A DNA stretch of 64,000 nt from Mesaphorura yosii (lineage: Eukaryota > Arthropoda > Collembola > Poduromorpha > Tullbergiidae), in NCBI GenBank assembly GCA_009869945.1, contig WIXG01000032.1, positions 248,001-312,000 of the forward strand. The letters run 5' to 3'. Within the stretch, counting starts at the first letter, position 1; the number at the start of each line of letters is the position of its first letter. Below the pieces are notes generated by a model, which was not told where the DNA came from, made no database searches, and saw only the letters and a program-made list of their open reading frames with translations. This document shows positions 24,961-63,100 of this stretch, one piece after another. The translations under genes were made by a program, and so were the position numbers.

Positions 24961-25594
24961 TTATACGTGTGCTTGAATTTTGTGATTCGTGATGCAAAAT
25001 GCAAAAGCTGCTAATTGATGGATGCCGACAGGTCTCAATTTACCCCCACGTGTTTTGTTTACCGCTCGTAATCGTAATTAGTCGTTTGGTGCTGGTTGGG
25101 CTCCTTAAAAGCGCTACGGCAATGGGGGTACTGCGCGTGCGCGTGAGGTGTCACATTGTTTACATGAGTCATTCATTGTTGAATTAGCCAGCTGCAAAGG
25201 CGGAGGTCCGCTTTGATGAATGGAAACAAGGCCAAAGCACGTGTCGTCCATGCTAGCCTTTGTCCACTTCGTGCTGGTCTACCTCAAACGCACTCAAATT
25301 GAACTCAAATCGCTTGAGTGGCGAAATGATTTGCGTTTCGACGACTGCAAACTGTAAACTGCAGATTGCGGTTGGAATACTGCGAAATGACTGTATGGCT
25401 ACAAACACCTGAAAAAATGACCGCTGAACGGATGCTGCACTGTGGTTAGGCCGCCGAGCTCTCTTCTTGGCCACGAAGGAGTGAAAGCGGAAAGCATCGA
25501 CGAAGCAATGCAACAATGCAAGCGGGCACGAGCTGCTGCATAATGTACAATAAACAGGCTACGCGGGCAGGCACTGCAGCAAATTTTGGCGTAC
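24961..25594. other. Non-coding interval between the LINE and the His-rich exon
   Basis: I see no coding exon, repeat or RNA gene here. Confidence 0.4.
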
Positions 25595-26147
25595 CTTCGT
25601 GCTCGTGGTGTGAATGATGTTCGTGTCCGTGATCCGAGTCTCCTTCTCCTGGCGTACGCGTTCCCTTCGCCTTGGATGTCTTCTTGTTTCTGGCCAGCTT
25701 GGTCTTGCCGCTTGCGTGAACGTGGTCATGGCCTGGGGCATGGTCTTTTTCTGAGGGAGGAATCGGCAGGATCAAATTGCGACCAACTTCTGACGGGCAG
25801 CACGGATGAGGGGTCAGTTTTCTTTGTGGTGACGACCCTTGCCCAAGAACGATCAAAGTATTGATACTCCCTTTGCAGGAGGAGGTTGATGTTGACGCAG
25901 GAAGCTGCTGCAGGTGAAGTTTCGGCACAGCGGCCTCGCGCTCTGCCTGTTCATCTTCATCGTGGACGATACCGTGATTATCCTGGCCCAAATCACCATC
26001 GTTACAACTACAGCATTGCCCGCGTGCTGAAGGCAGCGGTGATTCTTCACCCGTGTGTGACGACGCGTCTGAATTCAGTCCAGAGTCATGCGCTGCTTTG
26101 ACGGCGAGGGCCCTGCTGTTCGGTGCTACAAAGTCAATCCGGTCCAT
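25595..26147 (-). CDS. Histidine-rich alternative first exon, probably of ZnT1
   Basis: A 184-codon open frame begins at the ATG at 26147, with an in-frame TAA 15 nt upstream, and ends at a donor GAAG|GTACGC in phase 1. That is the same phase and almost the same donor context (GAAG|GTAGCA) as the short ZnT1 first exon, so it would splice in frame to the exon at 17903. The encoded N-terminus has a Cys pair region (CCSC), two His clusters (HAPGHDHVHASG and DHGHEHHSHHEHE) and a basic stretch (KLARNKKTSKAKG) between them. His-rich cytosolic segments are typical of zinc transporters. Spliced to ZnT1 it would give about 578 residues. No other minus-strand gene lies between the two. It could instead hold a small intron (acceptor-like TCCCTCAG before AAAAAGACC) or be a chance open frame. 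Confidence 0.55.
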
Positions 26148-27558
26148 CGCCGATCGATTTTACGGTATGCAGCAGAGTCACACTGAAAGAGCAGCACTTT
26201 TGGCAGTTGGCTAGACTTTGATGTTTACGTGAGCATGTCAGAGCTGCGTTTGAATCTGGATTCTCGTCAATCCGAGCAGTCAACAACTTATTAACTTTTA
26301 AACGGCTCGCATTCTATTCTGTATGGACTCTTTCTTCCCTCTGCACGGCGCAGCAGGTTCCAACGAAAAATGTTGATTAGATGCAGGTTGTAATTGAGAG
26401 GCGATGAAGCGAGTCTCTGATCTCAACAAAGAATATGAATGGAACATATGCTGTAACTTGGCAGCTCTTCGCAGGAACTTCGTCTCCAAATATTTAACAA
26501 TTAAATCAAGAGACACGAAAATCTGGTTTTCCTGCGAGCTGTCTGCAAAACGTAGGGCCAGAAATTGGCGATTGGCGTTATCGGGCGGTTCGACGCAGAA
26601 TTGTTTACCCGAATTTTATTGGCACAGCTGAAACCTTTGATCGTGATCGTTTTGTTATGCAAATCGGAGACTGTGAACTCGGCTCAAGTGGAAAACTCTA
26701 CATTTTTGTGCACCGCACCGTAATTACGATTTATTTACGAGTTGGTCGGCCCGCAGTTCGCAGAAGGAATCAAGAATTCGAAATCGTTGTGGGCCTGAAT
26801 TGTTGAATGTTGTGAATTGTTAATTACCTTCGTCATCACGATCACAGAGGCTTCTTCGCTCGATTCATTTGGAGAGCTCTACTTTGGAATTGTAAATGAG
26901 GCTGACGACTTGCGCAGTTTAGCTATTTAGCATCGAGGACGAAGAATGAATTGACAAGCGACAAATTGAGTATCTTGTGTGCGTGCATCGTTGAATAAGC
27001 CGCCGTAATCTGGAAAGCGTCATTTCAATTATTTGGTGCCGTGTGATTGTGGTTGATAATGCGTAATGCTACGATTAGTGAGGCTGTAAACCTGTGCTAT
27101 GAATGGCAATTCGGTTTGGGAGTTTTGCACGAGAACAACGACACGTGCTGCTTTGAGATTCCGCTGCTGACAGAAATAGCAGTTAGGGATTTCAGCTGCA
27201 GACGGCTCGCTTAGCGAACGAAGCGGAGTGTTTGCGTTTACGAGGCAGAAGAGTCGGAATCAACCTGATCGGCAATCACGAGAAACCCCATTTTCAATTT
27301 TTATGTACTCTGATTTATGCAGGTTCCTTCTCATAATGTCTAAACCGTATGACAATTGCGTTTCGAAGTGAAAAAAGTAGCGAACAACAATAAATAGTAG
27401 CTCAACCATTCCACAACTAGAAACAATGGCGGGACAAACCCCCCATTAAACACAGCCGGCGCACCTACCAACAAGTACAACAATACGTTCTAGCCTAAAG
27501 CCCAGACTACACGTTACGTCACTTTGGTTGCTCATCTCGTTCCTCGTCTAACCTAAAT
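26148..27558. other. Intergenic interval before IMMP1L
   Basis: Only short open frames without domains. It would contain the promoter of the distal ZnT1 exon and the 3' end of IMMP1L. No convincing signal was found. Confidence 0.4.
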
Positions 27559-28211
27559 CTAATGTAATACTCCATCTTGAATTTTTCGGTTTGGGATCAG
27601 TAAGGCAATATCACGAAATGGCCAAATCCGAAATAATGCTCGGCCGCGAACAAGGCCCATCGGAATCGGGCCGTATACTCTTGAGTCTGTCGAATTGCGC
27701 TCGTTATCACCTTCGATCCAAATGTAGCCCTTTGGTATCTGCGGAGCAGAAGAAAAATTAGCATTGGCACTGAGATCATACACGGAAGGGCGATGAACAA
27801 TTGGACGTGGGACCTCACCATCAGTATTGAGCCGTCGTGCTGGAGCAAACTATCACCACCAATCCCAACAACGCGTTTGCAAATGAATTGTCTCGGATTG
27901 GAAGGGCTCCTTGTAACGATAATGTCTCCCCGATTAAGCCACCCGTATCGCGGAGAAATGTGTTCCGTTATAATTACGTCACTAGTACGAATAGTAGGTT
28001 CCATACTAGGGCCCTGGCACTGAATAGCAAGGAATTGTTCACCAGTCAATTAGTAATTTGATGGGACGAGTAATTTCTATTGTCGACTTACAACTACGAA
28101 TTCCCCGAGGTATTCCAGAGTGCAATGCGCTATCACACCCCATTTGGCCACGTTTACCCACACCCCCATCGCCCTCCACATCACCGATCTGAAGTTGCTC
28201 CAGAAGCTCAT
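27559..28211 (-). CDS. IMMP1L: Mitochondrial inner membrane protease subunit 1
   Basis: Signal-peptidase-like serine protease of the mitochondrial inner membrane that trims sorting signals facing the intermembrane space. Three exons: 28211-28092 (40 codons), 28019-27819 (67 codons) and 27738-27559 (59 codons plus stop TAG), all in phase 0. The 166-residue total equals the human protein. Exon 1 encodes the membrane-anchor helix (VIAHCTLEYLGEF). The nucleophile Ser45 lies in CQGPSMEPT and the general-base Lys88 in FICKRVVG. Box E is GDNERNSTDSRVYGPIP, followed by GLVRGRALFRIWP. The S/K dyad and all boxes are intact, so it looks functional. Confidence 0.95.
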
Positions 28212-28998: not shown

Positions 28999-30896
28999 AA
29001 CAGCAGTCTTCGTTCAAGTTCAGGTTCTGTTCACAGTTAACCGTTCCAGCAAATAATGAAGCGCAGATGAATCAACTGGAACTATGAGACTTGTCTGAAA
29101 TATTTTCTTGCACAAATGCTGTCACTCAAGAGTCATAAAATTCAATGATAATGTGTACTTCAACGCCAAGATCCGAAGAAGGTAATAAAATGATGCAGTT
29201 TATGACAAGAAATTACTGCGGGAGGAAACAATAATTGTGAAATATGAAGAAAAACGGCAAAATACAAGCATAACAAAAACAATGTCGCGTGAGTACGAGA
29301 CAACCAGTAAAATCCAAGATTTTTCAAACACATCAGTCAATGGACGCGAGCCGGACCAAAGCAGCAGCCGGGCATGGACAACAATGACAACAAACAAACG
29401 GTCTCCTGCTGTGTAATGATAGCATTGTTGACGAGGACGGACGGCTTAAGATAAAAACTCATCTTCCAGTGCACTTGCGCGCAACGGCTATGAACTATGA
29501 CTCATTTTCCGCCACCTCAGGAAGCCGCTGCTGCTTGCTGGAATGAATGAGTTGTCGAGATTGTGACGCGACTAACCGCAGTCCGTCCGTTTTGAACCCT
29601 GTCTTCTCTTAACTTCAACGTGAATCAACGGTTGGTCACAAATGCTTAGCACCGATGAGTAATTTGTGCACTTGGCACTCTCCATGTACGAGAACTCATG
29701 AATCGTGAAGTGGATGCGAAAATTAGGAATGCGGTGATACGCAGCACAGCGCATTCGTTATTCGTCATTCGTGGCCTATCCTCCGTACTCCCTTCCTAAT
29801 TGATATGATCGGTCGCTCTTTAATTTCGTGGTCGATAACTGTAACTTTCCAGCACGAGCACGACAGGGATCATAGTCACTGTTTTATGTCGTCATCATGC
29901 GATCCGATTGGAATTGGAACCCCGCATGAGAGTGGCACACAATTCTCTAATCAGTTCAGTACTCAGAAATGGGCAATCAGCATATGCGAAAACAATATAG
30001 GACAGAGCGGAGAACAGAGTCGTACTGGCATTTTGCATTTCGCAACGTTGTTGGGCTGAATCTCACCACTTTTCGCATGTACTTTTCCTTGGTGGTTGGG
30101 CTTTCTGCGAACGAGCTGTGCCGTGCCGTATGCCAGCATTTATTCCGCTACTTGGAAGTTTGCGTGTGGCATTCGTGGAGCGAGAGAGCTGCAGTACGGA
30201 ACGAGTGTGAGACAAGTCAAGTCAAGGCGGTGCAGTGCACAAGTGCAGTGCAGCATTCAACCCTTTCGTGAATCTTTTCGCTCTGGCTCCGGCCGCTGCT
30301 GCTGCTGCCAAACTGACAGTTCAGTGAAAATAAAAATTCACAACACAACTGCAGCAGAACAGAACACCGACACCGCCTTTTTCTCATTTAACTTTCGTAC
30401 ATCCAGTCCAAAGTAATAACTAATTAGTGTCGACTGCCAGTAGTTAACAAGTTGTAATAATAATCGTCAACCAGCCAGCTTCCGACTCAACTATGCATTT
30501 AGGACCCAGTAAGTCGTTATTATAACGTAGTCATTTAGGTAAATTCTTAGGCTAGTTAACTCTTAACTGTAACCCGCCATCACAAGCCGCAAGTCACCAA
30601 CATTGAAACGAAGGCTACAGATTCTGGAATGGTCACCGCTCTTAAGATAAGCCATACACCAGAAGAGACGTCGAAGTGAAACGGAGGAGCCGGAAGACTG
30701 TCAATTCACCAGTGTCACCAGCATCGGCACTTCAGATCTTTCACTCTTTTGCCATTGGATCTCCAAGCTCATCTCTTCGTCGGCAATAAGCAAGTGACGG
30801 GTCAGTGCCGCGTAGATCTTCCTGAAGATACTCATCACCACTATCAAGTATTAGTTAGTTAGCCAGTCAGCGTAGCCAAGAATACTGATAAGCAAG
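28999..30896. other. Upstream region and 5' UTR of egghead
   Basis: About 1.9 kb with no supported coding exon. The last few hundred bases before the ATG at 30897 probably include the egghead 5' UTR. I cannot place the start site. Confidence 0.4.
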
Positions 30897-33800
30897 ATGA
30901 TTGTCTTATCGAGTCGAACAAAACACATTCTCCATGTATGCTTGCTCCTCATCACCGTTCTTGGACTGGAGTACCTGAGCGGCGCCCTCAGCTTTGGAGG
31001 AGCAGGAGCGAGAGATCTGGAAGAACTGAACCCGTGGACAGAGTACGGCTACGTCGGGGCGTTCATCCTCTACGCCCTTCGTCTCCTGACATTTCTCGCT
31101 CTGCCACAAGTACTATTCAACTTCATTGGGCTGATATTCTTCAACACATTTCCGGAGAAGATTCTACTCAAGGGTTCTCCCCTCCTCGCCCCATTCCTCA
31201 GTATCCGCATCGTCACCCGAGGCGACTTTCCAGAGCTGGTCAAGAAGAACGTTGGCCGCAACCTCAACACATGCCTCGACGTCGGACTCGAGAATTTTAT
31301 CATCGAAGTAGTGACCGACCGTGCCATTCCTGGTCTCGATCAGTTCTCAAGAGTGCGGCAGATTGTCGTCCCCTCGACGTACTGTACGAAAAGTGGTGCC
31401 CTCTTCAAGGCACGCGCACTCCAGTACTGTCTGGAGGAAGATGTAAATATGCTCGCAGATAGTGACTGGATTGTGCATCTCGACGAGGAGACTCTGCTGA
31501 CGGAAAACGCTGTTCGGGGAGTTGTCAACTTCGTACTCGACGGCAAGGCACAGTTTGGACAAGGACTCATCACGTATGCTAATGACCAGGTATGTCAGCA
31601 GTAGTTAAGCAGTCACAATCGATCAATTACTTATTTTTACGGTAGTAAACACTCTGGCAGATGGGCTTTTTGATTATGATCAAGTTCAAGACTAATTAAG
31701 CATTTTGCATTTAGCATTCGTCTGAAGGTTAGGCGAGTCATGTGTCAATGTCTCGGAAATGAAAGTAGGCGGAAATATGATTCTTGACTTGACATTCGTC
31801 ACTCCTGCGTTGCGCCGCGCCGCTTTCAAGTTCATTGTGTCGTGCCCAATGCATTCTCAAGAAATTTGATATCTCTTCCACTACTTTGCAATACTGCTAT
31901 AAATAAAATCAAAGTCGGTCAGCGATGTCAAGGCAGCGCAGTGCAGCACACAGCCGCATCAGTGGCTAGTTTAGTGGTTTGGTTTTGTTTTGTGCTGTGC
32001 TGATAAGATATACGCTCACCGAATACCGAAACTATGCTCAGCAACAGCAGCAGCGGCGGCAAAACATTAAGCAAGTCAAGTCACTAGCAAAGGCTTCGTC
32101 TGAAGTCACGTTCGCAGTGCACATCCACCACGGCGAGTGAGTGAGGAGCTGCGTGTTCGAGATACTTGTTTTCAAGTACCATAATTACATGGTGATGGTC
32201 TAACGATGGTCGTATTTACTGCCATAATGTGGTTTCTTAATTATAGAAGACGCATTACTCAGAGGAGTGCGAGAATTTTTCACATTGTTAAATACTGGAT
32301 GACCTTGCCAATTGCCATTGCAAGGCATTGCATTGGAAGTACGGCAGTAGCCTCAAGCAAAAGCAAAATCAGCATCCCCGTGAATGATGTTTGACATTGG
32401 CTAAAGTTTTTAGTGCCAACTACGCCGCAAAGAGCCAAGAGCTTGGTTTGGGAAATGCTGAGGGAAGACTCATTGCAATTCCAAATTTGCAATTAACAAT
32501 TGGTAAAGTAGTTAAGCAGTTAGTAGTGTAATACGAGTGAATGTTAAGTAGTATGAAATGCTGGCTGCAAGAGTCGTGATGTGCACTTGTATAGGTAACC
32601 TTCCCATCGAGAGTCACATCGCTACTCGACCGGCGTCGTCACAGCGGCAGAGGGAAAGAATGTGAATTGCGAATGCGAATTTAAATGACAATACACGAAG
32701 AGCGAATGCGAATTGCAAATGCGAATATTCATTCATGCACTCATCTCCCTACCCTTAACGCTAACAATGCCGAGATTAGTCACGGACAATCATACAATAT
32801 TGCGGTACCCATGTAAAAAATTGTGCAATCGCAAAGGCAACGGCAGGGCAAAGCAAGCAAAATAGCTGGGCAGACAACATATTCGCAATGCTATGCTGGG
32901 GAAACTTTTTGCATTGCAAGCAAATGCAAAGCGGCTCAACGCTCAAGCAGTTTTACGTACTTCATATTTTATTGCTTCTGCTGTCATAACTCGTACATTC
33001 TGATCCTTTTGTCCTCCGTCTTCATTTCATTGTTATTGTCATCGTCATCTTTTCTTCTTCATGGTAGTGTTTTGTTATGATCTACCATGACAAATAACCC
33101 CTAAGCACAATGGCCATGCAATACGTGCACTGTGATGACTGTGACTGGGAGCGTATCGAAATTAATTCCTGGAGGAAGGAAGCAATTTTAGGCTCTAATT
33201 ATTTCCATGCAAAACACAGACGAAGGCAGGAGCAACAACTATGATACAGTACAAAAGTACAAGTACAATGAGGGACATGTCCTCAAATTCATTGGCCTGT
33301 CCCAGCGAGATAATGACACGAGCCTGTGTCATACTGATTTTAATGCTGTGAGCAAATTCCTAGAATCTGAAGCACTGAATTTTCTTTGATGTTAATGATC
33401 ATTAATCATCGAGGCTTTGTGTTGGCACGTGTTCGTGTTTGAAGTTTGTGTTAACATGCTCGTAGTCTCGTAGAGATTTACTGTTGCTGTATGGAAAAGG
33501 GACCGACCGGCGTGACGAATCTTTTATAAACGCATCCAGTCAGTCGGCAGCGTTTCATTAGCATTTCGTTTTTGCACACTTTGCCTTGTCCCACATTGCC
33601 TTGCCATTTTCCTATCCTAACTCGTCCGTCGTTCGCTCTTGTTTCGCAACGCGAGCCGATGAGTGCTGTTTCAAAGTTTACATCTCCCTTCGCTAAAAAT
33701 AGCAGACGGCGTTTTGAGAAGTCTGGCTTTCGACCGACGACCGTCTCGCCTCCACCGGCAGCCGACTCGACTCTGAAAATTTGCTGCTGCGTGCTGCTCC

Positions 33801-39800: not shown

Positions 39801-42800
39801 ATCATATGAAATGAGATTTTTATTTGTGCCATTTCAGTCTCGTTCTTTTGTTCCGATGTCTTGTGTCATTCTCTTGAGAATCTGTGCCGCCGCCACTCGC
39901 AGTCGTTCGCAGATGAGCGATGAGGACGCGCGAGAAAGGAGAAAGTCTGCAAAGATTTCAGGTTGCAAAGTTTATTCTTTATTGCAAAGAGTACGCAAAG
40001 TTAATCCGCTCGGAGGAAATGCTGGATAGCTGGATTATTAGTTTATGAAATAAATCTTGATTAATGCGAGAGACGGCAGGCAGGCAGGCAAGAAAAATTA
40101 GACGCGGTGGGGAAGGCAAAGGCTCGAGAGGGCAAATCTCGTTCGCGAATGTTGTTTTCGGAACTTGCAAGGACAAACAAACTTTTTGCGAGAGGGGAAA
40201 GTGGAGTCATGCGTGAGTCGTTGCAGATGTTGGCTCGCTGTTGCTGTTCTCGGTTTGCAGCAGACTATGCTAATACTAATGATCGTTTGTCATGGAGAAC
40301 GCAGCACGCTTGGCATCGATTATCATGTTTCCTCCATCGAACGAATGCCGAATGAGGTTAATGCATCGCATCGTGTGGACCCGCAACGAACGACACCGCC
40401 GTAATTTATTAGAAATCCATTACGCAGGAGTAGCGAACGGTGGCAGGCTGAATGAAATGAAATTGAGCGAGCACATGCAACGCAATGCAAGGAACAAGTG
40501 CGTTAAGTAAAATGAAGTAAGTGATCGTGTTTAGAATTTACGACGGACGACTGATAGGCCGCATGCGAACACGGTCGAATGCAGTAGCGGCAGCGGCAGG
40601 CACGAAAGATTGATTTTTGCCATTTCGCGAATCGCGTTCGCGATTCTAATAAATATGTAATAGTATTAATATATCATGTTTCGTGGTGAGTTCCACGTTG
40701 TTTGAGTGCGGACGAGCGGTGTCTTGACTTTCTCCGAGTGCCGAGGAGCGGCGGCAGGGCACTCGAACGAGCGCGCGGCGTCTTTTCGGGTCAAACCACT
40801 CATATCGACATCAGCTTTTTAGGCATGCATGTCGTGTCCGCACGGCGTCTCCTCCTCACGGAAGTTTCAAGTTCCTTCTCCACTCCTGCTCTCTCTCGAG
40901 CTGAGTTCGTAGAAAATTACTTCACTCGCTTGACGACTCGCAGGCAGCGACAGCCAAAGCAAGAGAAAGTTTGCGAATGGCAATGGAATACGCGAGAGAC
41001 GGGGAAATGGAAGCCAGACTCCAAAGATATTTAAGATATGAGCAGAATAAATATTTGGGCTTATTGACTTCTTTGGCTTCTAGAAAGCTAAAAACTTTGG
41101 CACGGTTGGTATGAACCCCGAAGTTTTCTATTTTCTTCGGAATGAATCCCGATTTGAGGAACTGTAAATTAAATTGAGATTATCAGCTCTCCTTTAGCTT
41201 TGTCGGCACATTCGCAACTCGCATTCGCATTTTAGGCTCGTGCTTGGCATAATGGACGTGGTTTACGACAGGAGAGGCAAGGCAAAGGGGAGTAATTTCC
41301 ATTCGCATTTGCAAATACAGCTCGTGTGCACGTTGCGAGTAGAGAACAAAAGCTTGGCATAAATCATGAACACCATAAACTTCAACACTGCGAACGAAAC
41401 CATAAAACACGCCACTCTTTACATTGTAATGATACCGTTTCTGTTTCATGTATTTCGTGCTGCGTTGCATGAGAACCGGTACGCGTGCAGCTTGCAGGAT
41501 GGCCGGGCGCACTGAGCAACAAACTTTCACAGCTTTCACCGTGCGCGCGCACCAGCGTAATTCGTTTTCTTAATTGGTTTTTCTATTCGCCCTCACCTCA
41601 ACCGCACGATTGAGTGTGTTGTTATTACATTACCGTGCCAAAGGAATAAGTAATGGAATACGTATGTTTGTGCTGGCGGGTTCGACTCGTTTGCCGTTTG
41701 GGTGTGGTGCATTATTCGATATCATTTGAGCGCACGCGCACGGCGACTGGGCCGAAGCTACAGCCACAGCCGCACTGTCCTGCCATCAAAAGAATGAGAA
41801 ATTACTGAATTAGCCACACAAAGAGAAACAGCGCGCGTGGCACGGAGGGCATGGCAGACGTTCGCATTCACATTGGTAGTGACTCCTGGTTAGATTGATG
41901 CGTGCACTTTGCCCGGAATTAAAGCCCATAAATTTACGCCCTTTCATCGCCCTCCCGCTCTTTGTTCCTGCTGTTGTCCTCGCCATATTTCTCACTGATC
42001 CCTTCCGGATCGTGGGCAGGGGCTTATGCAGGTAGAGCATAAACAACGAAGCTACCTGCGCCTGCTCCTGCTTGCTCCAGTTTTACACATTAAATGGCAA
42101 ATTTGTAAATTCATTATTCAGCGTGAGCGTGTCTTTATGCCTGTCGTGGCATTTAACAAATTCCCGAGCAATTTCTGGGTTGACTTGGTTGTTGGTTCTA
42201 GAACGCCAAACTTAAATGTACGCTGTAACAAGGAATTAGAGCTCGTCAACTTCCAAACGAGTGGCCCACACGCACACGCAGTCGTGAGAAATGACACAAT
42301 GATTAATTAAAGTCTGAAGTCCGCCGCTCGAGAGAAAAGTGGGATCTGAATTGTCGAGTACGACGACGCGTGTAAATACAAAATGAGTGATTATGATACA
42401 TTAGGTTAGGGGCTCGCGTCTTGCCGTCTTGAGTCTTGCCTTCCAGTCGTCGAGCGCACAAAGCTAGTCGCTCGTTTCTGCCCAAGTCAAGCGTTCGTGG
42501 TGCAATTTGTTTCGTGTGCGTTTATTGATCGCCATTGCATTGGAAGCGATAAGCAATTGCCTTCGCCATCACCGAATTCCTCGGAAATTGGAAACAGAGA
42601 TAAAAGTTTCAAGTCGAGCTCCACTCGACTGTCGACTCTGCAGCGGCTCCATAATTTAGCGTGTGGAAAATTACTTTTCTTTTTTGTCCAAATATTTAAT
42701 ATATTATGACAAAGCAAACAGGGCACAATGGCTGGGCTCAAACTAGAAATCAATACGACCACTTTCCATTATGCGAGAATTCGGGAATGACAATTCTCGG

Positions 42801-50407: not shown

Positions 50408-51611
50408 ATGCCTATTTTATACACGGTGATCGCACGGGACTCGTCCACAGTGCTTGCGAAATACGCAGCGTGCACTGGAAACTTCGCAGAAGTCACTGAA
50501 CAGATTTTGGCCAAGATTTCGACAGAAGATTCCAAACTCACGTACTCACATGGTGCTTATCTATTCCACTACATCAAGGAAGACTCAGTCACCTACCTCT
50601 GCATTACTGACGATGTAAGAAACATTTCTTTAGCAACTCAGTACCCTTGCAAGAGCTGATTAAACTGAAATCTGAATTGCAGGACTTCGAACGATCAAAG
50701 GCATTCATGTTTTTGGCTGAGATCAAAACCCGGTTCAGGCAAACTTACGGATCATCGCGGATTCGTGATGCCTTGCCATACGCAATGAACTCGGATTTCG
50801 CGACCCTGCTGGCTTCAGAAATGGTACTGCTTGTTATAAAGTTAGAGAAGCTGCAAACTTGGACGCGGCCAGTGCAATTTTTTTTAATCCTGCCGAGTTT
50901 TCCGTTATTACTGAATTCCAGAAACGATTCTCGGAGTCTCGTGATTTGGATGCTATTTCAAAGGTACAAGGTCACTTGGATGAGCTCAAGGATATTGTGG
51001 TGAAAAATATTGGTAAGTGTGGACTGACGACGACTGGACGTGAACCCTACTTGGACAATTCTATCGGCAGATACTCTGACTATTTAGATAACATTGCTGC
51101 CCGCGGGGAGAGACTTGAATTGCTGGTCAACAAGGCCGAAAATTTGAATACCACCGTAAGTTGCCACTCTGGTCGTACACAATTCATGCGTATCTGCTTA
51201 ATTGCGTGTACTCTATTTCAGTCGCTTTCCTTCCGAAACACCAGCCGCAGCGTAGCACGGAAAATGTATTGGAGAAATATCAAGTTTGGGGCCATCATGG
51301 TTTTGATCGCAATTGTAAGTTCAACTGTTACGCCTTTTTTCTTGTTCTGTTGCACTGTGGCAGGGCAGTGAAAGTGCTCTCTTTCGCTGTTCGATTTCTA
51401 AGAGACAAGTCACGCAAGGCAAAATGAGTTTCCAGATGATTTAGCTCACTAATTGCATGTACTTCCTGGTCTGTTCCTCGTGATTCTTGTACTCTTTCGT
51501 ATTGATTTCTTGTAGTTGATCATCTACTTGATCGTTTCCTTCTCGTGCGGTGGCCTTACTTGGAATTCGTGTGTTGGTGGCGGTGGGTCGCCGTCTAACA
51601 AAACCGGATGA
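50408..51611 (+). CDS. VAMP7: VAMP7, longin-domain R-SNARE
   Basis: SNARE for fusion of late endosomes, lysosomes and secretory vesicles. Six exons: 50408-50614, 50683-50823, 50922-51012, 51088-51155, 51222-51314 and 51516-51611 (stop TGA). Phases match and give 231 residues (human 220). Residues 1-116 are the longin domain, with MPILYTVIARDS, ILAKI, LTYSHGAYLFHYI and YLCITDDDFERSKAF. The SNARE motif has ELKDIVVKNIDNIAARGERLELLVNKAENL, whose Arg in RGERL is the expected zero-layer residue. A C-terminal transmembrane helix (IMVLIAILIIYLIVSF) precedes a short lumenal tail with CGGLTWNSC, close to vertebrate VAMP7. Introns are 68-201 bp. SEC22 and YKT6 were considered, but sequence identity favours VAMP7 strongly. 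Confidence 0.96.
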
Positions 51612-52592
51612 ACAAGGAGCAACCCAGTCAAATATATTGATGCTCGTGTCCTGAGTCAAGATGTCAAGAAGTCGTGTTTAACTGAAAATATAAAAGTCCC
51701 CAAAGAGCAGAATTCAACTCGACGTCTTTCTACAATTACGCAACATGCAAAGTAATACAAAATCGATACGAATAATTTTGCAATTAAGTCAGCCATTTTC
51801 GTGAGAGTAAAGCTTAAAGCTTGAATCAATTAATTATCTATGCAACTTATGCGAGTACTTCTGTTCTCTTTGTATTGTGTTTATTTGCACCATGTATTTC
51901 GAATCTCTGAACAAAAATTCATTGGAATTCCTCAATTTGTCACCAGAGATTGGGATTTATAATTGTGATTTTTCATTTACTAGCTTGTCTGTCAGACTCA
52001 TGATTGTAAAATTGTTCATTCAATGATTTTATCGTTGGCAAAACTCCGCAATAAAATAAATTGTAATGAAGGAGCGAGCAGTGAATGTGTCACATGAAAG
52101 CGTTCAAATAACGCAGCTTAAATCCAAAGAAGAATTCCTGACGTCGTTCGTCGCTGGCAATGCAGCATATTTTAGCCCGAGCGAAACGAGTTACGTAAGG
52201 TACGAAGTTAAAAACCGTCGCCCTTGATGATTACGATGAGTCGTAATGCCGTCGGAGTGGCAAGCAGGCGTGGAATGGTCAATGACTTTGGTCTGATCGG
52301 AAAGTGCAGAACAGCAGAACTCGACAGTGACTCGTCCTCATGCGGGTGCTTCGTTGTTGCGAATACCGGTTTCACAACACATGATTCAATCCCTTCGTGA
52401 GGATTTGCAATTTGCCAATTGATTCGTTACCCAAACTCGTACGAAAGAGCTTTCGTGCTGGCAGATCTTAACCTGTTTTTTTTCACAGTTACGCGCAATT
52501 CCTGAGTTTAATCAACCTGTTAGGCCCGAGTAATCGGTTCAGTCTACGGAGTGAACTTCCCGACGGCAGAACCATTATCTTGGCCGGCCATC
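51612..52592 (+). other. VAMP7 3' UTR and upstream region of the next gene
   Basis: Overlapping AATAAA signals at 52050-52060 probably end VAMP7. A strong acceptor-like tract (T-run plus CACAG) ends at 52488, 104 bp before the next ATG, suggesting that the following gene has an upstream non-coding exon. No coding sequence was recognised. Confidence 0.5.
52050..52060 (+). terminator. Poly(A) signals of VAMP7
   Basis: Two overlapping AATAAA hexamers 440 bp after the VAMP7 stop codon. Confidence 0.5.
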
Positions 52593-54124
52593 ATGTATAA
52601 CATTTTCGTTGTAAGCTGGAATTGTCCATTTGCCCTTTGTGACTGTGCCGGTGACCTTGCACTGAATTTTGCACTTTTGTTTTGGCTCGCAGAGAAACCG
52701 AGGCTGGATCTGTGTGGCGTCCTGCGCGCTGACGTTTCTGGCGTTGCTGGTCACAGTCACCGACTCGCAGGGCGTGAGCGAGGCCGCCTGGCCGTACCAC
52801 TTCTACGCTCCTGCCTACAGCCACTCTGCAGTGGGGCCGGTGGTCATCCAGACGCCATACCACTACCTGGGCGCAAATCGCGACCGACGCATACTGAGCC
52901 TCTTTAAGAAAGGTGCGGGCCCTCAACTAGTAATTAGGCAAAAGCAAACCGGGCACGGGCACGGGCACGGGCACGGGTGGGGACACGGACACGGTGGTGG
53001 TGGACATAGTAGTGGAGGAAGCAGCGGAGGTTAATTCACATCTCCATGGGCTCTGGACTCAACTGTTCACTGCCGCCGCCGCAGGTGGAGCGAAACTAAC
53101 CACCTTTCCTTCTGTTCTGTTCCTTCGCAGGCTCAAGCAGTGGCGGACTCTTGAAGGGATGGCTGCCAAAGAAGAGCTTCGGAGTGCACGTAACCGGTGA
53201 GCCAAAATTTCCTTTCCTGATTAAAGCATTCAAGGGATACGCGCACTCATTTCCGGTCGAGGTCTCGGACTCTTAAGAAAGGTTTCTAATTCCTCAGTGT
53301 GGAATCTCGCTTCAGACAGCACGGCATTCATTCCTTCTTATCAATAAACAACAAAGCAATTCAGAGGTAGACAAGGCGGAGAAAGAACCACATGATGAAG
53401 TAACGAGAGACCAGGCAGGCAGGCGAAAAAGTTGTCGGACAACAAATTTGCAAAGTGATGGTTGCGTTCTTGTCGTGTGCAATGAAAATACAGCAATGAG
53501 AATGAGCAGAGGGTCAAGCCAGGTAGGGTTCGGAGACCGGACACACAGACACTCGTGCCACCGCCGCCATGGCCCGTGGCAATTACAAATTGTACTACTC
53601 TCGAGACGAAGCTCGACTGGCGATTTCGGCTCGAGACACGTGATCCGGCCGACCCGTCATTGAGACAAGACTTGTTTTGGGTCCACGAATGCTGTCTCTG
53701 CTGCACTGTGTTGTTACATTTTATGTGTTTGTTGTGTAATCTCGCAGGTGGGCTTGGCTTCTCGTTCGGTGGCAAGAAAGAGGAGAAGAAGGAAGAGCAC
53801 CACCATCAGGGCTACGGATGGGGGTCGTACAAACCCCATCATGGGTGGGGGAGCTATCATAAGCCAAACCACGGGTGGGGAAGCTACCATCATCCGCACA
53901 GCCAGCATTCGTACGGCTACGGTGGCTACGATGACGAGTACAGCTACGACGACACCGAACGCAGCGCCATCACCGGTCTGGACGTGGACATGGACGAGGA
54001 GGACGCTGAGATCGAGGCGGAGGAGCGCGCTGACCTCCGACCCAGACTTCTGCTTCTCGACAACCTGTACGAGGACGAGGACGAGCCTTTCCTGTACGCC
54101 CCCATCGAGGACGAGTACTATTAG
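52593..54124 (+). CDS. Unrecognised secreted Gly/His/Trp-rich protein with acidic tail
   Basis: Function unknown. Four exons: 52593-52610, 52693-53029, 53131-53196 and 53748-54124 (stop TAG). Phases match and give 265 residues. The first exon encodes only MYNIFV. The next begins with a charged RNRGW and a hydrophobic signal sequence (VASCALTFLALLVTVTDSQG), so the protein is probably secreted. Order after that: an aromatic/His segment (WPYHFYAPAYSH, PYHYLG), a (GH)n run with GHGHGHGHGWGHGHGGGG, a Gly/Ser linker, a Lys-rich patch (GGKKEEKKEE), three GWGSY repeats separated by His/Pro/Lys (KPHH, HKPNH), a Tyr/Gly/Asp stretch, and a strongly acidic tail. Exon 3 is 66 bp with phase 1 at both ends, so it can be skipped. 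An internal donor (AAAG|GTGCGG near 52911) would remove the (GH)n run in the same phase. Composition suggests a cuticle, silk, glue or metal-binding extracellular protein, which is inference only. Confidence 0.8.
52950..52980 (+). repeat. GGGCAC hexamer tandem repeat in coding sequence
   Basis: About four direct copies of GGGCAC encode the Gly-His run of the secreted protein. The tract is likely length-variable between individuals. Confidence 0.7.
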
Positions 54125-54320
54125 TCCCTACCCATGAAGGAATTATTCAGGTTGCCAAATACTTGAGTCTTGGACGGGAGCGTTGCATTTTGTGTATTCA
54201 GAAATTTTAAAAATTTGTGGACGAGATTTTAAATTGTTTTGGGGTCTGATCTGGGCAGTCATTGGGATAAAGTTCACGTTCACTGCGAGACTCTGCACGT
54301 GGACGTGGAGGTGAAAGTTG

Positions 54321-54326
54321 AATAAA
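54321..54326 (+). terminator. Poly(A) signal of the secreted Gly/His-rich gene
   Basis: AATAAA about 200 bp after the stop codon. Confidence 0.6.
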
Positions 54327-55760
54327 ATTTGCCCGGCTGATGCAGTCTGCGTTTTAATTACCTCGTCAGCTCATTTCACATTACACGTGTGTGCGACTTT
54401 GAATTATTCAAATTGGCGTGGGAACTATTTGCAAAAACTTTTAGCAAACTTGGGATTCCAGTGAAAGCACACTCTTCCCGTGCAGCAGAGGAAGGCGATT
54501 GCAAAAGAAACGAGAAGAAAGTGCTCAAGAATCGTTTGAATACAGCATTTGTGGGAAAGACGACTTTCTTTCTGCTCTGTCACTGGTGCTGGATCGCAAA
54601 CATGCGAATGTCAGCATTAATCACCCGCCCGCCCTGCTTTGCTGGCTGCATCAGTAGCAGTAGCAGCTCGGAAAGGCAACATTATTATCGTATTCATTAT
54701 TGAGTCATTGCGTTGGCTGTTGGTGAGGACGGCATGAAAAGACGACATACATTTCTTATTATTGGATAAAGTTGCCAATCACCGAGTTGTTGGGACGCAC
54801 GAGCGAGAAACAGCATCTTGAGTGGTTTGATTCCGCCGCAGTTCCTTGAAAAGATGAGAATTGACTTTGCACTTTGGCTCTGCTTTCTTCTGCAGCAAGA
54901 AGGCAGGCAGGCAGGTTGGCTGCGTTTGCGTGAGCGCGCGTTATTAATGGTGAAAGTTGGCTGGGCTGGCAGGCAGGGTTGTCGGTCCCTCCGGCGAGGC
55001 AGAGTGACTGTGTGGCATTGTGAGATGATCCCGTTCTCAATAATCCCTGAGCATGAAGCCCCCTCGCAGGATGAAGTCAGACAGATAAGTAAGTCAGGGA
55101 GGCAGGCAGGCAGACAGACAGGGAAAGCACGGCGAGCGAGTGAAAGTGGAAAGAGAAAAGAAATTAAGCAAAGTTGGAGCAGAGCCGTGTTCGGTGGGAC
55201 GGAGACGCGAGAAGGAGCAGAGCGAAGAAGCCTGTGCCTCTCTGTGAATGCGGTGCTGAATATGAGCTTGACACATCCAAAGCCAGACTTTCCCACTCTC
55301 CTCCGCTGCTGTCGTTACCTGAGCGGGCGTCTGGAGAAAGTCTTTCAGTGAAAGCGAGTGGCGAAGGAAGGACGAGCCTGTGCCTGTCTGGAGAAGAACA
55401 CGACCACTTGACTCAGTCTCTTCTGCACTACTCTGCTCTGCATTGTTGTGTTGTGCTGTTGTGTGGGGAGCGGACGACAAATCACTCACATTTTAAATTA
55501 CTTTTTTCATTTCACATTCACACCATCGCACAGATCAATAATCGATTTCTCAATTCTAGACTCTTCATCTCTGCTGGCTGGCTCGGACGGGATGCTGCTG
55601 ATCTCTGCGTGCGTGCACAGCGTGGCTGTGGCTTAGCGCGGCTGAAGCAACGGTCGATATTAATTAGTCATCTGCCAATTGCACTGCGGTGTTTAGTGTT
55701 CGCTCATTTTGTCCGTGCGTGTGGCACTCGTGCGAGTAAAGTGACTGCAGCAGCAGCAGG
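54327..55760. other. Intergenic interval upstream of the LCCH3-like gene
   Basis: No supported exon. It contains short GGCA/GGCAG microsatellites (near 54900-54915 and 55100-55120). The promoter of the receptor gene should lie near its right end but was not located. Confidence 0.5.
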
Positions 55761-58183
55761 ATGAAGACGAAACTGTTAATTGTCTGTTCCTGGATCTTTC
55801 ACTGGACCACATTTTCCAAGTAATGCAAATTAGATCCACGTTTCTTAGCTATCAACTCTTAACTCGGTAAATTGCCGTGTTATTTGCAGCTTGATGTTTG
55901 GGTCGTCGGCAACCTCGAGCGAGAAACTGGAGAACGTGACTCAGACGCTATCAAAACTACTCAAAGACTATGATATAAGACTTCGGCCGAATTTCGGAGG
56001 TGAGCTCGCCTGCCTGCTTTGTGTCGCTACACAAACGTGGCGAGGTTTATGTCCCCATTAAATTTTATGGAGTGAAAGTGGGACAGGAGGCCCGAGATTG
56101 CTTTGTGCTCTCGTCCTCTCGACATTCCCCATTTGCTATTCGCTTCACGGTTGTGCAGCCAGAAATGAGTGCTGGAGGAAGTGATACTAAACTTTCATGA
56201 GCTGGCCTTCACTTCACGTGCGAAAAGTGAGCACATTTATGCGAGTTGCGAGAGCGGGTGACACGAGTCGATGAGAGGTAGGCAGGCAGGAAATCGGGAC
56301 GCTCGTAAAGATGCTTCTCGCAAATTATTCAGTGTGATGGTCAATAAAGGCCAGGCCAGAGCGAACAGCGAAGGAAGAATTGGAGTGAAAAAAAGTATTT
56401 GAATTTTGCCTGGGTCTTGCAGGGGAGCCGCTGTATGTCGGAATGGATCTGACAATAGCCAGCTTTGATCATATCTCTGAAGTCAACATGGTAAGCCACT
56501 AACGAGTGCGAACGAGAAGAAAGAATGGAATGATGCCATGCCTTACGCTGTTGCGTTGTAGGATTACACAATTACAATGTACCTTAATCAGTACTGGAAG
56601 GACGACCGACTGGCCTTCAGTTCGGAGTCCGAGGTGCTGACACTCAGCGGCGATTTCTCCTCAAAAGTCTGGGTGCCAGACACTTTGTAAGTTGAGGACC
56701 CACACTTCTTTAGTGGGCATATTTTGCATTGCTTGATTGCATTATTTGGTTGGGTCCCACAGTTTTGCGAACGATAAAAACAGTTTTCTCCACGACGTCA
56801 CAGAGAAGAACAAAATGGTGCGGCTATACGGCGACGGGAGCATCACGTACGGAATGCGGTTCACAACCACGGTGAGCTTTCAACTCGAATAACTCGTTAG
56901 TAGAACTCGTTAATGTTTTTGTTTTACTGCAGCTGGCCTGCATGATGGAGTTCAAAACATTCCCGTTGGACAGCCAAAACTGTTCTGTGGAAATTGAGAG
57001 CTGTATGTCGAATGGCTATCAGTCGAAATATTTGCATTTCGTGATGTCTGAACTGTTCCCTCTCGTTGACAGATGGCTACACGGTCTCAGACGTGGTCAT
57101 GTACTGGAAAGACACGCCTGTGCTGGGAGTGTCGGACGCCGACATTCCGCAGTTTACGATAATCGGGTACGGGATCCACGACCGGATCGAGACGCTGGCG
57201 ACGGGCGTATACCAGCGTCTCTCGCTGTCTTTCAAGCTGCAGCGCAACGTGGGCTACTTCATCTTCCAAACGTATCTGCCCTCGATCCTCATCGTCATGC
57301 TCTCGTGGGTCTCCTTCTGGATCAACCACGAGGCGACGAGCGCCCGCGTGGCGCTCGGCATCACGACCGTGCTCACGATGACCACAATTAGCACTGGCGT
57401 CCGCTCTTCGCTCCCTCGTATCTCGTACGTCAAGGCCATCGACGTGTACTTGGTCATGTGCTTCGTCTTTGTCTTTGCCGCCCTGCTCGAGTACGCCGCG
57501 GTCAACTATACGTACTGGGGAGCACGCGCCAAGAAGAAGAACAAGTGCAGAGCGGGCACTCCCACCAAGAGACTTGCTCACCAGTGTGGGCCCGGAGGAA
57601 ACGAGGAGATCATCGAGCTGCACGTAAGTACCGTCAAAAATTCAAGTCAGGCCTTTGATGCACGTATGCAAGGAGTGTGGTTTTTGCTTTTGCCCTGCAG
57701 GAGCTCCAGCTTTCGCCGATCCCCTCCATCCGCCAGCGGTCACACCACTTTGGCGCCAGTTCACGCAGCGATCCCTCCAGCGCGGCCAACTCGCCCAAGT
57801 ACCCGCCTAGTTTCAGAATCCACCGCCCGCACTACCCGCTCGCAACATCACCAACTCTCTACTCGGGCGGTGCCTACAACCGCACCGGATCACTCGGTGG
57901 CTCCGCACGGCGGCGCAGGGGCGGGCCCAGTCGGAGCAGCAGCAGCAATATGCCCCGCCAGAGCATATACGGGCCTGGTGTGATAGGCGCCGTGGCAGGA
58001 GGCGGCGGAGGTCAGCAGCCCAGAAATGTACGCATGTTTGATTCACTACGGAATCGTGCAAGTGCAATCAAACAGTCGATTCCTAGAATTCGTGACGTGA
58101 ACGTCATTGACAAATTCTCACGAGTGATTTTCCCCGTTTCGTTCATTGTGTTCAATGCCATTTACTGGTGTTTCTATTTGTAA
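55761..58183 (+). CDS. Lcch3: Cys-loop ligand-gated chloride channel, GABA receptor beta-like (LCCH3 type)
   Basis: Pentameric neurotransmitter-gated channel subunit of the nervous system. Eight exons: 55761-55819, 55890-55999, 56423-56490, 56562-56686, 56763-56871, 56933-57002, 57073-57623 and 57701-58183 (stop TAA). All phases match and give 524 residues. Features in order: signal peptide ([15 protein letters not shown]), extracellular domain ([46 protein letters not shown]), Cys-loop [15 protein letters not shown], and TM1-TM3 from [15 protein letters not shown] on. TM2 carries the anion-channel [14 protein letters not shown] in place of PARVALG, as in LCCH3. The intracellular loop is long, Ser/Gly/Arg-rich and divergent. 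TM4 follows [17 protein letters not shown]. The extracellular and TM core is nearly identical to insect LCCH3; only the loop is lineage-specific. Confidence 0.95.
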
Positions 58184-58743: not shown

Positions 58744-58748
58744 TTATT
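58743..58748 (-). terminator. Poly(A) signal overlapping the Ly6-like stop codon
   Basis: The minus strand reads AAATAAATG at the end of the gene, so the hexamer AATAAA contains the TAA stop codon itself (58744-58746). If used, the 3' UTR would be only about 10-30 nt. Confidence 0.45.
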
Positions 58749-59734
58749 TCCAGGGTATAAGGATGAAAGTTACTGCCAATGCCAGGGCAAGGAGCAGTTG
58801 TAAACTGCACCCGGCGCCGGCGGGCAGTCGCCATGCTCCATTGCAGTAGTCTCCTTTGCAGATGCACACTTCGTGGATGCGCCCGCCCCGCGACTCTTTG
58901 TAGCAGCCCGAGTCCAGCAGCTTCCCGTTGTCCTGCGTGACCGTCCCACAAAAGTGGGTCTCGTTGACCAGCGTCTTGTCGTCGTCGTTGTTGAAGATGG
59001 AGTACTTGACACACGTCGCATGTGAACAGAAACACGCCTCACTAAAGTTGATGCAGTAGTCACGCACAGCGCGCGGGTGGGGGCGCTTTGACGAGTTTGA
59101 GTCTGGAACACGAACAGTGAGAATTCTAGGAAACGTGCACAAGCACGACGCATGCATGGCGATTGGCGAAGGACTTACACGCATACACGATCGGGTCGAA
59201 GCACGCTGCAGCCGGGTTGTCTTCCTTCACCTGGGCGCAGGTTCTAGAAATATTCGACGTTGGGATCTCGGGCGGCCTGTTTTGCGTCTGCTCGTTGCCG
59301 GGCCATGTGTACTGCATGCAGCAGCTGCGGTCTCCCGAGCTGGTCATACAGCCGGTGCTCGTCGTGGCGTCTCCCTCGCCCACATCGTCATCTGCTCGTG
59401 ACTCCACCGCTCTCGGGAGGCGGAGCGCCGGCGGTGCTGGGCCGTCACTCTCGACACCTAAAAAGCAGTAATAAGGAACAGTTTCCTTGTACCTTTCTTC
59501 TAACTTGTCCTATGAACGCGCACCTTCGATCGAGAGGCTCCTGGACACGAAGGAGTGCGCCTCGCCGTCCTCTCCGTGTGCCTCCAAGATATTCGCCCGC
59601 AAATTTTCGATCTTACTAGAGCTCGGTGTAATTATATGCGTGAATACGAAGTAGGCGAAGAGTAAAAAGTACAGCGAAGAACCTAAGAAACTACTGGGTC
59701 GTAGGAAACGTGGAGCTGGCCTCCGCTTCACCAT
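58744..59734 (-). CDS. Ly6/uPAR-like cysteine-rich membrane protein
   Basis: Specific function unknown. Three exons: 59734-59524, 59457-59179 and 59102-58744 (stop TAA), in phase, 282 residues. An N-terminal basic stretch (MVKRRPAPRFLR) precedes a hydrophobic helix (SLYFLLFAYFVFTHII) that could be an uncleaved signal anchor or a signal peptide. Then come a charged linker and two Cys-rich parts: an upstream one (TGCMTSSGDRSCCMQ, ISRTCAQ, AACFDP) and a downstream one (YCINFSEACFCSHATC, HFCGTVT, SGCYKE). The domain ends in CICKGDYCNGA, the typical CxCxxxxCN signature of three-finger folds. The last 25 residues are hydrophobic (LQLLLALALAVTFILI), as in a GPI-anchoring signal. TGF-beta type I receptor ectodomains share the fold, but no GS or kinase domain follows. 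Confidence 0.8.
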
Positions 59735-60858: not shown

Positions 60859-61996
60859 TTTGAGTCTAATCTGCAATTTGCTATAAACTGTTAACGCTGT
60901 TTAGCTGTCTAAAGTTAACTAACCTCTAATCGTTATGTTTTGGTATAAAAAACGTCCGAACTCGATACTCGTCTGCTCTCTAAGAGATGTGAAGTCAAAC
61001 TACGTTGTCTACGTATTTCGTGTGTTGTTGTTGACCTGACGCTCGATGAATTTCATCTTATTTACATATCTCCTCGCCAATATCTCTTGCGTACAAAAAG
61101 AAGAATAAGAAAACACATGAGTCATTACTACTTGATTATCAGATCGTAAGCACGCAGTCACTACGCATTTGTAATGACTGTCATCGGTTTAAGCATCGAT
61201 TACAACCGTGACTATAATAACTTGTGGAATTTGGCTTGGCAAATTAAGGCAGAAAAGAAAGCAAGATTGGATCTCAAAACCGCCCAGAGAAAATTGCGGC
61301 CTGAATAGACAACAGTGATAAGTGCATTGAAAGTTTTGAGCTATGTGTTTGGCAGTTTCACCTGTTTAGAGTTGTCTAGGCTATAATTACATTCAGCAAC
61401 CATTCATAAAGCGGGTCCTCGTTGGGGTCGTTGGGGAGTCTATCCGTCCGTTTTATAGTATTTACAGTCTGAATATTAATGGGAATTCATTGTTCCAAGT
61501 TAGACGGATGGCAGGCAGCTACGGAACACCGATTTTGGTCTGCATTCGGCATTCAGACAATTCAGAGAGCGTTCAGCTCGAGTGTGCTTGTGCCTTACGA
61601 ATATTGCAATTCGCGTCACCCAATTCGTATTGCACAATTCTGTTGAGAAAAACACTACAAAACAAATTAGCGTCCGTCTCATTTTATTGGGGAGCCATGC
61701 CACAGCCCAGCGGTGTGCAAACAAGTGGCTAGCCGGACAATGGAATAATTAATTCGTTCTTCATTGTGCACTGACTGAGTGAGTGTTCCTGGAGCAACAC
61801 AAGACTACAAGTACGAAATACGCAGAGTCGTAAATTAAGAGCGAAATCGCGCCAGTACGTCATGCCCCAATTTCACCCGACGACGACGACTGTTGCTGCG
61901 GTGAAGCGAATCGACAAATGCAACTCCAAGTTCAACCCTCATTTGTAATTTGGCACTCCTTCTAGTCGGTTCCTCCAAAATGCAGTGAAAGTGATC
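60859..61996. other. Divergent intergenic interval before the GPCR gene
   Basis: Contains the promoter regions of the minus-strand 155-aa gene and probably of the GPCR. A plus-strand TATAAAA is at 60944-60950, too far from the GPCR ATG unless a 5' intron exists. No coding exon was recognised. Confidence 0.4.
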
Positions 61997-63100
61997 ATGG
62001 CCCATTACGCTGCTGGCGAGTGGCTCATTCTCTCCGCGTACATCGTGCTTGGTGTGCTTGGGGCAGTGGGCAACGGGTTCATCCTCTTTGTGATTTATCG
62101 GCGGAGCAACATGCGGACCACCACCTTCTACCTCCTGGCCAACCAGGCCATCTCGGACGGGGCCTGCGGGCTCTTGTACCTCAGTCTCTGGTACTTTTGC
62201 TCGGCCCAAATGCTGGAATCGTCAGCGGGTCAGGTCACCTGTGAGATCCTGTACACCTGCAAAGTGGCAACGTTCTTCGTGTCCGTGCTGACCATGATGA
62301 CGATTTCGCTCGAGAGGTACGTGAAGCTGTACTATATTCAGTCGACAGGTCTCCATCTGCGCTGGTCCATCACGCTCATCTGGATCGGGGGCATGTTCAT
62401 CGCCGTGCTGGCCATGTTCCACTTCAGAGTGGCTCGCTTCTTCACCGCCGAGCGTCTCGTCGGCTGCAGACTGGCGTACGAGGTGCAAGGCGTCTCCTTC
62501 TTCGAGGAGCACTACAACTTTCTTCTCATTTTCCTCCTGGGCAGTGTCATTCCGCTCTCAATCACCGCATTCAACTACTGGAAAGTCGTGCAGAAAATAC
62601 GCAACCGACAGGCTGTCGGGGGACGCAGTGTGGCGGCGGCGCCCAGCACGGCCTCGCCCGAGGGTGGAAGAAATGCGTTCGGTGCTGCCGTCACCACCAG
62701 CCAGAGACGAGCCAAGAAGAACAAGCGCAAGACCGTCGAGATGCTGATCGTCATCGTCCTGGTGTACGTCGTTTTGTGCGGCCCGCTCTACGCTGTGTAC
62801 CTTATCAGCTACTTTGTCACCCCCATCCTACCCGATCGCTGCGACGCGAGCACGGAGGAGCCCGCCTTCTACCTCGCAGCCTACTTCATGGCCGTTTTCT
62901 CCATCTGCATCAACCCGGTCATCTACTGCTACTACAAGAAGGAGTTCAGGACCGAACTCAAGGCCGGCATCAGCGTTCTCTCCTGCAGGAAAGTGTTCCA
63001 GGCTGCGGGTGACGACTCGGCGGCTGTGGAGGACACGACCTTACACTCGGGCGCCAACGGGAACGACAACGACAACGGCGGGAATTGGAAGTCAACGTAG
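61997..63100 (+). CDS. Orphan rhodopsin-class (class A) GPCR, intronless
   Basis: A single open frame of 367 residues encodes seven hydrophobic segments. Landmarks: TM1 GNGFILFVI (Asn25), TM2 LLANQAISDG (Asp54), the disulfide Cys82 at the start of TM3 and Cys157 in the second extracellular loop, SLERY at the end of TM3 (E/DRY position), TM4 W129, TM5 P186, a long basic third intracellular loop, TM6 VYVVLCGPLY, and TM7 NPVIY (306-310). The third loop (about 200-247) is Ala/Ser-rich then KKNKRK. The extracellular N-terminus before TM1 is only about 8 residues and has no glycosylation site, so an upstream coding exon is possible. TM6 lacks the usual tryptophan of CWxP. Ligand unknown; peptide or amine receptors are both possible. 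A short upstream ATG frame (from 61980) precedes the start. Confidence 0.85.
   Translation: MAHYAAGEWLILSAYIVLGVLGAVGNGFILFVIYRRSNMRTTTFYLLANQAISDGACGLLYLSLWYFCSAQMLESSAGQVTCEILYTCKVATFFVSVLTMMTISLERYVKLYYIQSTGLHLRWSITLIWIGGMFIAVLAMFHFRVARFFTAERLVGCRLAYEVQGVSFFEEHYNFLLIFLLGSVIPLSITAFNYWKVVQKIRNRQAVGGRSVAAAPSTASPEGGRNAFGAAVTTSQRRAKKNKRKTVEMLIVIVLVYVVLCGPLYAVYLISYFVTPILPDRCDASTEEPAFYLAAYFMAVFSICINPVIYCYYKKEFRTELKAGISVLSCRKVFQAAGDDSAAVEDTTLHSGANGNDNDNGGNWKST

What the first reader, a model, noticed from the sequence alone, without database searches (positions are those of the whole stretch)
52593..54124. Undescribed secreted Gly/His/Trp-rich protein with GWGSY repeats and an acidic tail
It combines a signal sequence, a (GH)n run, a Lys/Glu patch, three His-flanked GWGSY repeats and a dense Asp/Glu/Tyr tail in one protein. 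His-Gly-Trp repeats of this kind resemble copper- or zinc-binding repeats such as the prion octapeptide by analogy only. The opposite charge blocks suggest self-assembly, as in glue, silk or cuticle proteins. I know no named family with this order.
Basis: partly seen in the sequence, partly recalled or inferred. Interest (0 to 1): 0.75.

Follow-up and report, generated by a model that had tools for sequence, protein, structure and literature searches.

The report
Histidine-rich secreted structural protein gene
This is a convincing gene for a small, floppy secreted animal protein with a histidine/tryptophan-rich block and a strongly acidic tail, most likely a building material of arthropod cuticle or a similar secreted coat, and probably one more member of a familiar kind rather than something fundamentally new.

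Summary
A four-exon gene (ATG 52593, stop 54124; GT-AG introns, matching phases) encodes 265 aa with a signal-like N-terminus, a (GH)4 run, a Lys/Glu patch, three GWGSY units and a D/E-rich tail. The GWGSY count, GH run and acidic cluster were each reached in 0 of 3000 shuffles. The 18-nt first exon splitting the signal peptide matches the layout of most intron-bearing Anopheles CPR cuticle genes (PMC2259329, passages). The mature chain lacks cysteine and has 9.5% His, within the 6-45% reported for silkworm His-rich cuticular proteins (PMC8062583). Pfam shows no family up to E 10, so membership in any domain-defined cuticle family is unsupported. No collection searched covers animal genomes, so relatives and taxon restriction remain untested. 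Best reading: a disordered, charge-segregated cuticle/matrix protein whose His, Lys and Tyr serve as cross-linking or metal sites, with opposite charges that cancel near pH 6.2 (interpolated). Function is inferred. Points against: no canonical TATA box, no AAP motif, and a weak second donor that allows a 119-aa short isoform.

The parts
52539..52543 (+). TCAGT, candidate initiator (A+1 at 52541, 52-nt leader)
   Evidence: Only TCAGT in 52001-52600; position. A 5-base match can be chance; no canonical TATA in -40..-20.
52593..52610 (+). exon 1, 18 nt coding, MYNIFV
   Evidence: best scoring of 4 candidate first exons at donor score >= -1; donor GTAAGC at the 94.0 percentile.
52693..53029 (+). 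exon 2: hydrophobic part of signal sequence, aromatic N-terminal region, basic LFKKG patch, (GH)4 run, Gly/Ser stretch
   Evidence: codon score 0.128 bits/codon against at most -0.120 in the other five frames.
53032..53034 (+). in-frame TAA met if intron 2 is retained (119-aa short form)
   Evidence: Sequence, ORF ending ...GGSSGG; donor GAG|GTTAAT scores only 0.08, 92.4 percentile of all GT on this strand of the window.
53131..53196 (+). exon 3: SSSGGLLKGWLPKKSFGVHVT
   Evidence: Gly/Ser run continues across the exon 2/3 junction; donor at the 99.3 percentile.
53748..54124 (+). exon 4: Lys/Glu patch, three GWGSY units, acidic Tyr-containing tail, stop TAG
   Evidence: sense codon score 0.273, but the antisense frame is also open and scores 0.227.
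53774..53797 (+). KKEEKKEE patch
53816..53887 (+). three GWGSY units (53816-53830, 53843-53857, 53873-53887)
53930..54121 (+). acidic tail, aa 202-265
54321..54326 (+). AATAAA, candidate polyadenylation signal, 197 bases past the stop
   Evidence: Only AATAAA in 54101-54800; distance.

Best explanation
A secreted, cysteine-free, intrinsically disordered structural protein of an arthropod cuticle or cuticle-like apical matrix. Shown from sequence: the gene model, signal-like N-terminus, block composition and charge segregation. Inferred: it is packed in secretory granules near pH 6, where the His/Lys/Arg body (+25.7 at pH 6) and the acidic tail (-22.6) nearly cancel, which favours a dense fluid phase. 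After release to higher pH the histidines lose charge and become free as nucleophiles and ligands; His, Lys and Tyr are then joined by quinone tanning or dityrosine cross-links, or hold divalent metal, while the GWGSY units add aromatic contacts.
For: In-phase four-exon model. Codon use matches window genes in both large exons, as the best of six frames in each. An 18-nt first exon splitting the signal peptide: PMC2259329 reports this in 86% of intron-bearing Anopheles CPR genes, with first exons of 3-36 nt (passages); PMC2793513 says most CPR genes have such an intron (passages). Mature chain with 0 Cys, 22 His, 18 Tyr; PMC2259329 notes that Cys is scarce in mature CPR proteins. 9.5% His, within the 6-45% of silkworm His-rich cuticular proteins (PMC8062583 section 8); one of these was cross-linked in vitro by laccase2 with NADA or NBAD (section 11). 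Charge segregation reached in 0 of 2000 shuffles, total charge +3.1 at pH 6 and -3.4 at pH 6.5. Single-sequence AlphaFold2 models show no ordered part beyond the signal helix (mean pLDDT 55.8 and 55.1).
Against: No chitin-binding or other cuticle domain in Pfam. No AAP motif and only 2 GGxG. No canonical TATA in -40..-20, whereas 145 of 153 Anopheles CPR promoters analysed had one. A short first exon is not unique to cuticle genes (PMC2259329 says so). No expression data. The six neighbours that Pfam named at E <= 0.01, of 10 ORFs scanned, are not cuticle genes. Low pLDDT without an alignment is weak evidence of disorder. The taxon is unknown.
Confidence: 0.55

Rival explanations
2. A metal- or mineral-handling matrix protein: the His/Trp block binds Cu or Zn, or the acidic tail binds Ca and controls mineral.
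For: 22 His, with 6 HxH, 4 HxxxH and 3 HGW; tail of 64 residues with 26 D/E. His-metal contacts stiffen polychaete jaws, spider fangs and insect mandibles (PMC6477608, passages).
Against: His density is within reach of shuffles (142 of 3000). No PDB relative beyond a GH-run match at E 0.0072. Nothing shows that this animal mineralises.
Confidence: 0.12
3. A precursor cut into short GWGSY peptides (neuropeptide or antimicrobial).
For: Repeated short motif behind a signal-like sequence.
Against: The five dibasic sites (aa 71, 78, 132, 150, 154) all lie before the repeats; none separates or follows them.
Confidence: 0.03
4. The gene model is wrong: exons 1-2 form a short secreted protein ending at TAA 53034 and exon 4 belongs elsewhere or is not coding.
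For: Weak donor 2 (0.08); a phase-2 GT at 52977 scores higher (1.78); the antisense of exon 4 is open and scores 0.227 bits/codon against 0.273 for sense. An upstream alternative first exon (MRVLLFSLYCVYLHH, donor -0.63) also exists.
Against: Gly/Ser continuity across exons 2-3 and agreement of three junction phases. The 52977 donor would lead into the exon-4 frame that has 4 stops.
Confidence: 0.1

Closest known systems
Silkworm His-rich cuticular proteins (e.g. BmorCPR152, CPLCP11/12; PMC8062583, passages and sections 8 and 11)
   Same: Secreted, low complexity, His 6-45% (here 9.5%); imidazole proposed as the cross-link site.
   Different: Most of those carry an RR-2 or another family signature; none found here. 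No acidic tail is described in what I read.
CPG (glycine-rich) and CPH (hypothetical) cuticular proteins (PMC12426002, passages)
   Same: Signal peptide, glycine-rich, no chitin-binding domain required for the name.
   Different: Few GGxG (2) and no AAP; similarity to a named CPH or CPG could not be tested.
CPR genes of Anopheles and Drosophila (PMC2259329, PMC2793513, passages)
   Same: Short first exon splitting the signal peptide, TCAGT-type initiator, AATAAA within 500 bases, cysteine-poor mature chain.
   Different: No R&R consensus, no canonical TATA.
His-metal proteins of polychaete jaws and arthropod biting parts (PMC6477608, passages)
   Same: His-rich and Gly-rich; possible metal ligand sites.
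   Different: Working analogy only; no sequence comparison made.

Membership tests
CPR cuticular proteins | R&R consensus (PF00379) | tested here: not met
   0 Pfam families at E up to 10.
CPR cuticular proteins | short first exon interrupting the signal peptide (frequent, not exclusive) | tested here: met
   18-nt exon 1; reported range 3-36 nt.
CPAP / peritrophin-like | cysteine-bearing chitin-binding domain (cysteine framework recalled) | tested here: not met
   0 Cys in the mature chain, no Pfam hit.
CPCFC | C-x5-C motif repeated | tested here: not met
   0 Cys in the mature chain; definition from PMC12426002.
Tweedle and CPF | their conserved blocks (recalled to have Pfam models) | tested here: not met
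   No Pfam hit.
Resilin | RR-2 region and YGAP-type blocks | tested here: not met
   No Pfam hit; no YGAP in the translation.
CPG | GXGX or GGXG repeats | tested here: inconclusive
   16 GxG but only 2 GGxG, 16.8% Gly.
CPH | signal peptide and sequence similarity to known CP genes | not testable with these tools
   Signal-like N-terminus by eye; no animal protein collection to compare with.
His-rich cuticular proteins (descriptive group) | 6-45% His in a protein recovered from cuticle | tested here: inconclusive
   9.5% His met; presence in cuticle not testable.
CPLCW | invariant Trp in a conserved mosquito domain | not tested
   No reference sequence was available.
Neuropeptide precursor | repeat peptides flanked by dibasic sites | tested here: not met
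   Dibasic sites only before the repeats.

The most novel reading that the evidence does not exclude
A single-chain, self-complementary polyampholyte: the His-rich body and acidic tail form a one-component coacervate that is charge-balanced near granule pH and sets on release, with HGW-containing GWGSY units as copper or zinc nodes; retention of intron 2 would switch between a tail-less 119-aa form and the full self-condensing form.
Probability: 0.1. Interest if true: 0.65.

Novelty: new member of a known kind. Interest (0 to 1): 0.3.

Why it matters
If the reading is right, it adds a compact natural example of a secreted protein that carries both partners of a charge-driven condensate plus cross-linking histidines in one 232-residue chain, useful for cuticle biology and for bio-inspired materials. 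It does not by itself change a known picture, since arthropods have many fast-evolving low-complexity cuticle and matrix proteins.

Tried and rejected
Relatives: exon 4 against viral contigs (600 pattern matches, 0 confirmed) and exon 2 against genome contigs (97 pattern matches, 0 confirmed). Neither collection is of animal genomes, so these negatives say little. Paralogs inside the window: tblastn with low-complexity masking found only the gene itself and one match at E 0.80 (41084-41158, minus), taken as chance. PDB: 5 sequences at E up to 10. The two best, E 0.0072 and 0.06, align only to the GH run; two at E 0.59 are light chains of a clostridial toxin complex, and one at E 1.9 is a linker construct; I take all five as chance or low complexity. 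Whole genome: none held. tRNA scan: none.

Papers, 10 searches used. GWGSY: 1 paper, on antibody design, unrelated (listing). Five longer peptide strings: 2 papers, both holding only the GH string (listings). Searches gave listings from which I opened six papers, as passages or named sections. One search (with mayfly) gave none. One search, meant for the Drosophila Vajk proteins (recalled), listed 8 of 39,761 papers and none of the 8 held that name, so that comparison was not made. 'Not in print' is therefore claimed only for these strings in this library.

Considered and set aside: neuropeptide precursor (no dibasic sites in or after the repeats); prion-repeat homology (analogy only, not tested); structure searches (both models too poor to search, so fold search was not used).

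Full report
What is there. Nothing in the six-frame listing alone shows the gene, because exon 2 contains no ATG and ends in an in-frame TAA. Splicing four exons gives one 265-aa frame: 52593-52610, 52693-53029, 53131-53196 and 53748-54124, with phases 0, 1, 1, GT-AG borders, and three acceptors ending CGCAG. A TCAGT initiator-like site places a start 52 bases before the ATG, and AATAAA follows 197 bases after the stop. Both are short strings that can occur by chance, and there is no canonical TATA at -40..-20.

How sure is the model. Using 523 codons from five Pfam-supported stretches of this window as training, the modelled frame scores best of six in exon 2 (0.128 bits per codon; next -0.120) and in exon 4 (0.273). 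The antisense frame of exon 4 is also open and close behind at 0.227, so codon use alone does not decide exon 4. Donors 1, 2 and 3 rank at the 94.0, 92.4 and 99.3 percentile of all GT on the + strand of the window, by a matrix that I recalled. Donor 2 (GAG|GTTAAT) is weak; if it is not used, translation stops at TAA 53032-53034 after 119 residues. A phase-2 GT at 52977 scores higher (1.78), but would lead into the exon-4 frame that has four stops. Of four candidate first exons with donor score of at least -1 in 51500-52650, MYNIFV at 52593 is best (0.59); a hydrophobic alternative, MRVLLFSLYCVYLHH, exists at 51849-51893 (-0.63). The Gly/Ser run that continues from exon 2 into exon 3 supports the second junction.

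What the protein is like. The N-terminus is signal-like, by eye and by hydropathy; no signal predictor was available. Taken from aa 34, the mature chain has 232 residues: 16.8% Gly, 9.5% His, 7.8% Tyr, 0 Cys. Blocks in order: aromatic N-terminus with a basic patch, (GH)4 run, Gly/Ser stretch, KKEEKKEE, three GWGSY units in a 40-residue segment with 11 His, then a 64-residue tail with 26 D/E and no His. Shuffling aa 33-265 reaches the GWGSY count, GH run and acidic cluster in 0 of 3000 cases each, the K/E patch in 5 and the His density in 142. Charge segregation exceeds 2000 of 2000 shuffles. Synonymous-only differences among the GWGSY copies argue for constraint on the peptide; the GH run looks like recent slippage. 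Single-sequence AlphaFold2 gives only the signal helix for exon 2 and nothing ordered for exon 4 (mean pLDDT 55.8 and 55.1), which agrees with disorder but is weak evidence.

Surroundings. Of 10 neighbouring or larger ORFs scanned, 6 gave a Pfam family at E up to 0.01: synaptobrevin (50769-51368 +), Neur_chan_memb (57045-57980 +), rhodopsin-type 7tm_1 (61949-63097 +), Glyco_trans_2_3 (30876-31601 +), Peptidase_S26 (27600-28049 -) and, below its curated cut-off, QVR/Ly6 (58747-59226 -); 4 gave none. The channel ORF is closest in PDB to GABA-A receptor beta subunits (best E 1.1e-61). This is an animal genome. Arthropod origin is an inference from the layout and from my recall of such genes; no tool named the organism. 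I found no cuticle gene beside it, but I scanned only those 10 ORFs.

What it most likely does. [quoted passage not shown] PMC2793513 says the same placement holds for most CPR genes (passages). Silkworm scales contain 23 and 20 His-rich cuticular proteins at two stages, with 6-45% His, and a 45% His member forms films when cross-linked by laccase2 (PMC8062583, sections 8 and 11). The present protein fits this chemistry but has no domain of that group. Calculated charge is +25.7 for the body and -22.6 for the tail at pH 6, total +3.1, against -3.4 at pH 6.5 and -10.6 at pH 7.4. From this I infer granule condensation near pH 6 and setting after release, with His, Lys and Tyr as cross-link or metal sites. 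None of these steps is shown experimentally. Against it stand the missing TATA box (145 of 153 analysed Anopheles CPR promoters have one), no AAP motif, and no expression data.

Novelty. No Pfam family at E up to 10; PDB matches are to the GH run or chance; the string GWGSY occurs in one unrelated paper of the library. Absence of relatives cannot be claimed, since no animal collection could be searched. Low-complexity, fast-evolving cuticle and matrix proteins are a well-known kind, including classes kept for the unclassified (PMC12426002, passages). I therefore score it as a new member of a known kind with modest interest.

Noticed in passing
53714-54127 (-): The antisense of exon 4 is also a long open frame (137 aa) with a codon score close to the sense frame (0.227 against 0.273 bits per codon); probably a by-product of the codon bias, not followed.
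   Followed up: partly
25446-26159 (-): Open frame with a His-rich stretch (DHGHEHHSHHEHEG) that by eye resembles a zinc-transporter loop; Pfam found no family.
   Followed up: partly
58747-59226 (-): Possible Ly6/quiver-type membrane protein with a hydrophobic C-terminus; QVR match is below the curated cut-off.
   Followed up: no
61949-63097 (+): Long single-exon rhodopsin-type GPCR (7tm_1, E 2.3e-35).
   Followed up: no
24097-24468 and 24585-24761 (+): Open frames that by eye look like the end of a retroelement-type reverse transcriptase (listed); not tested.
   Followed up: no
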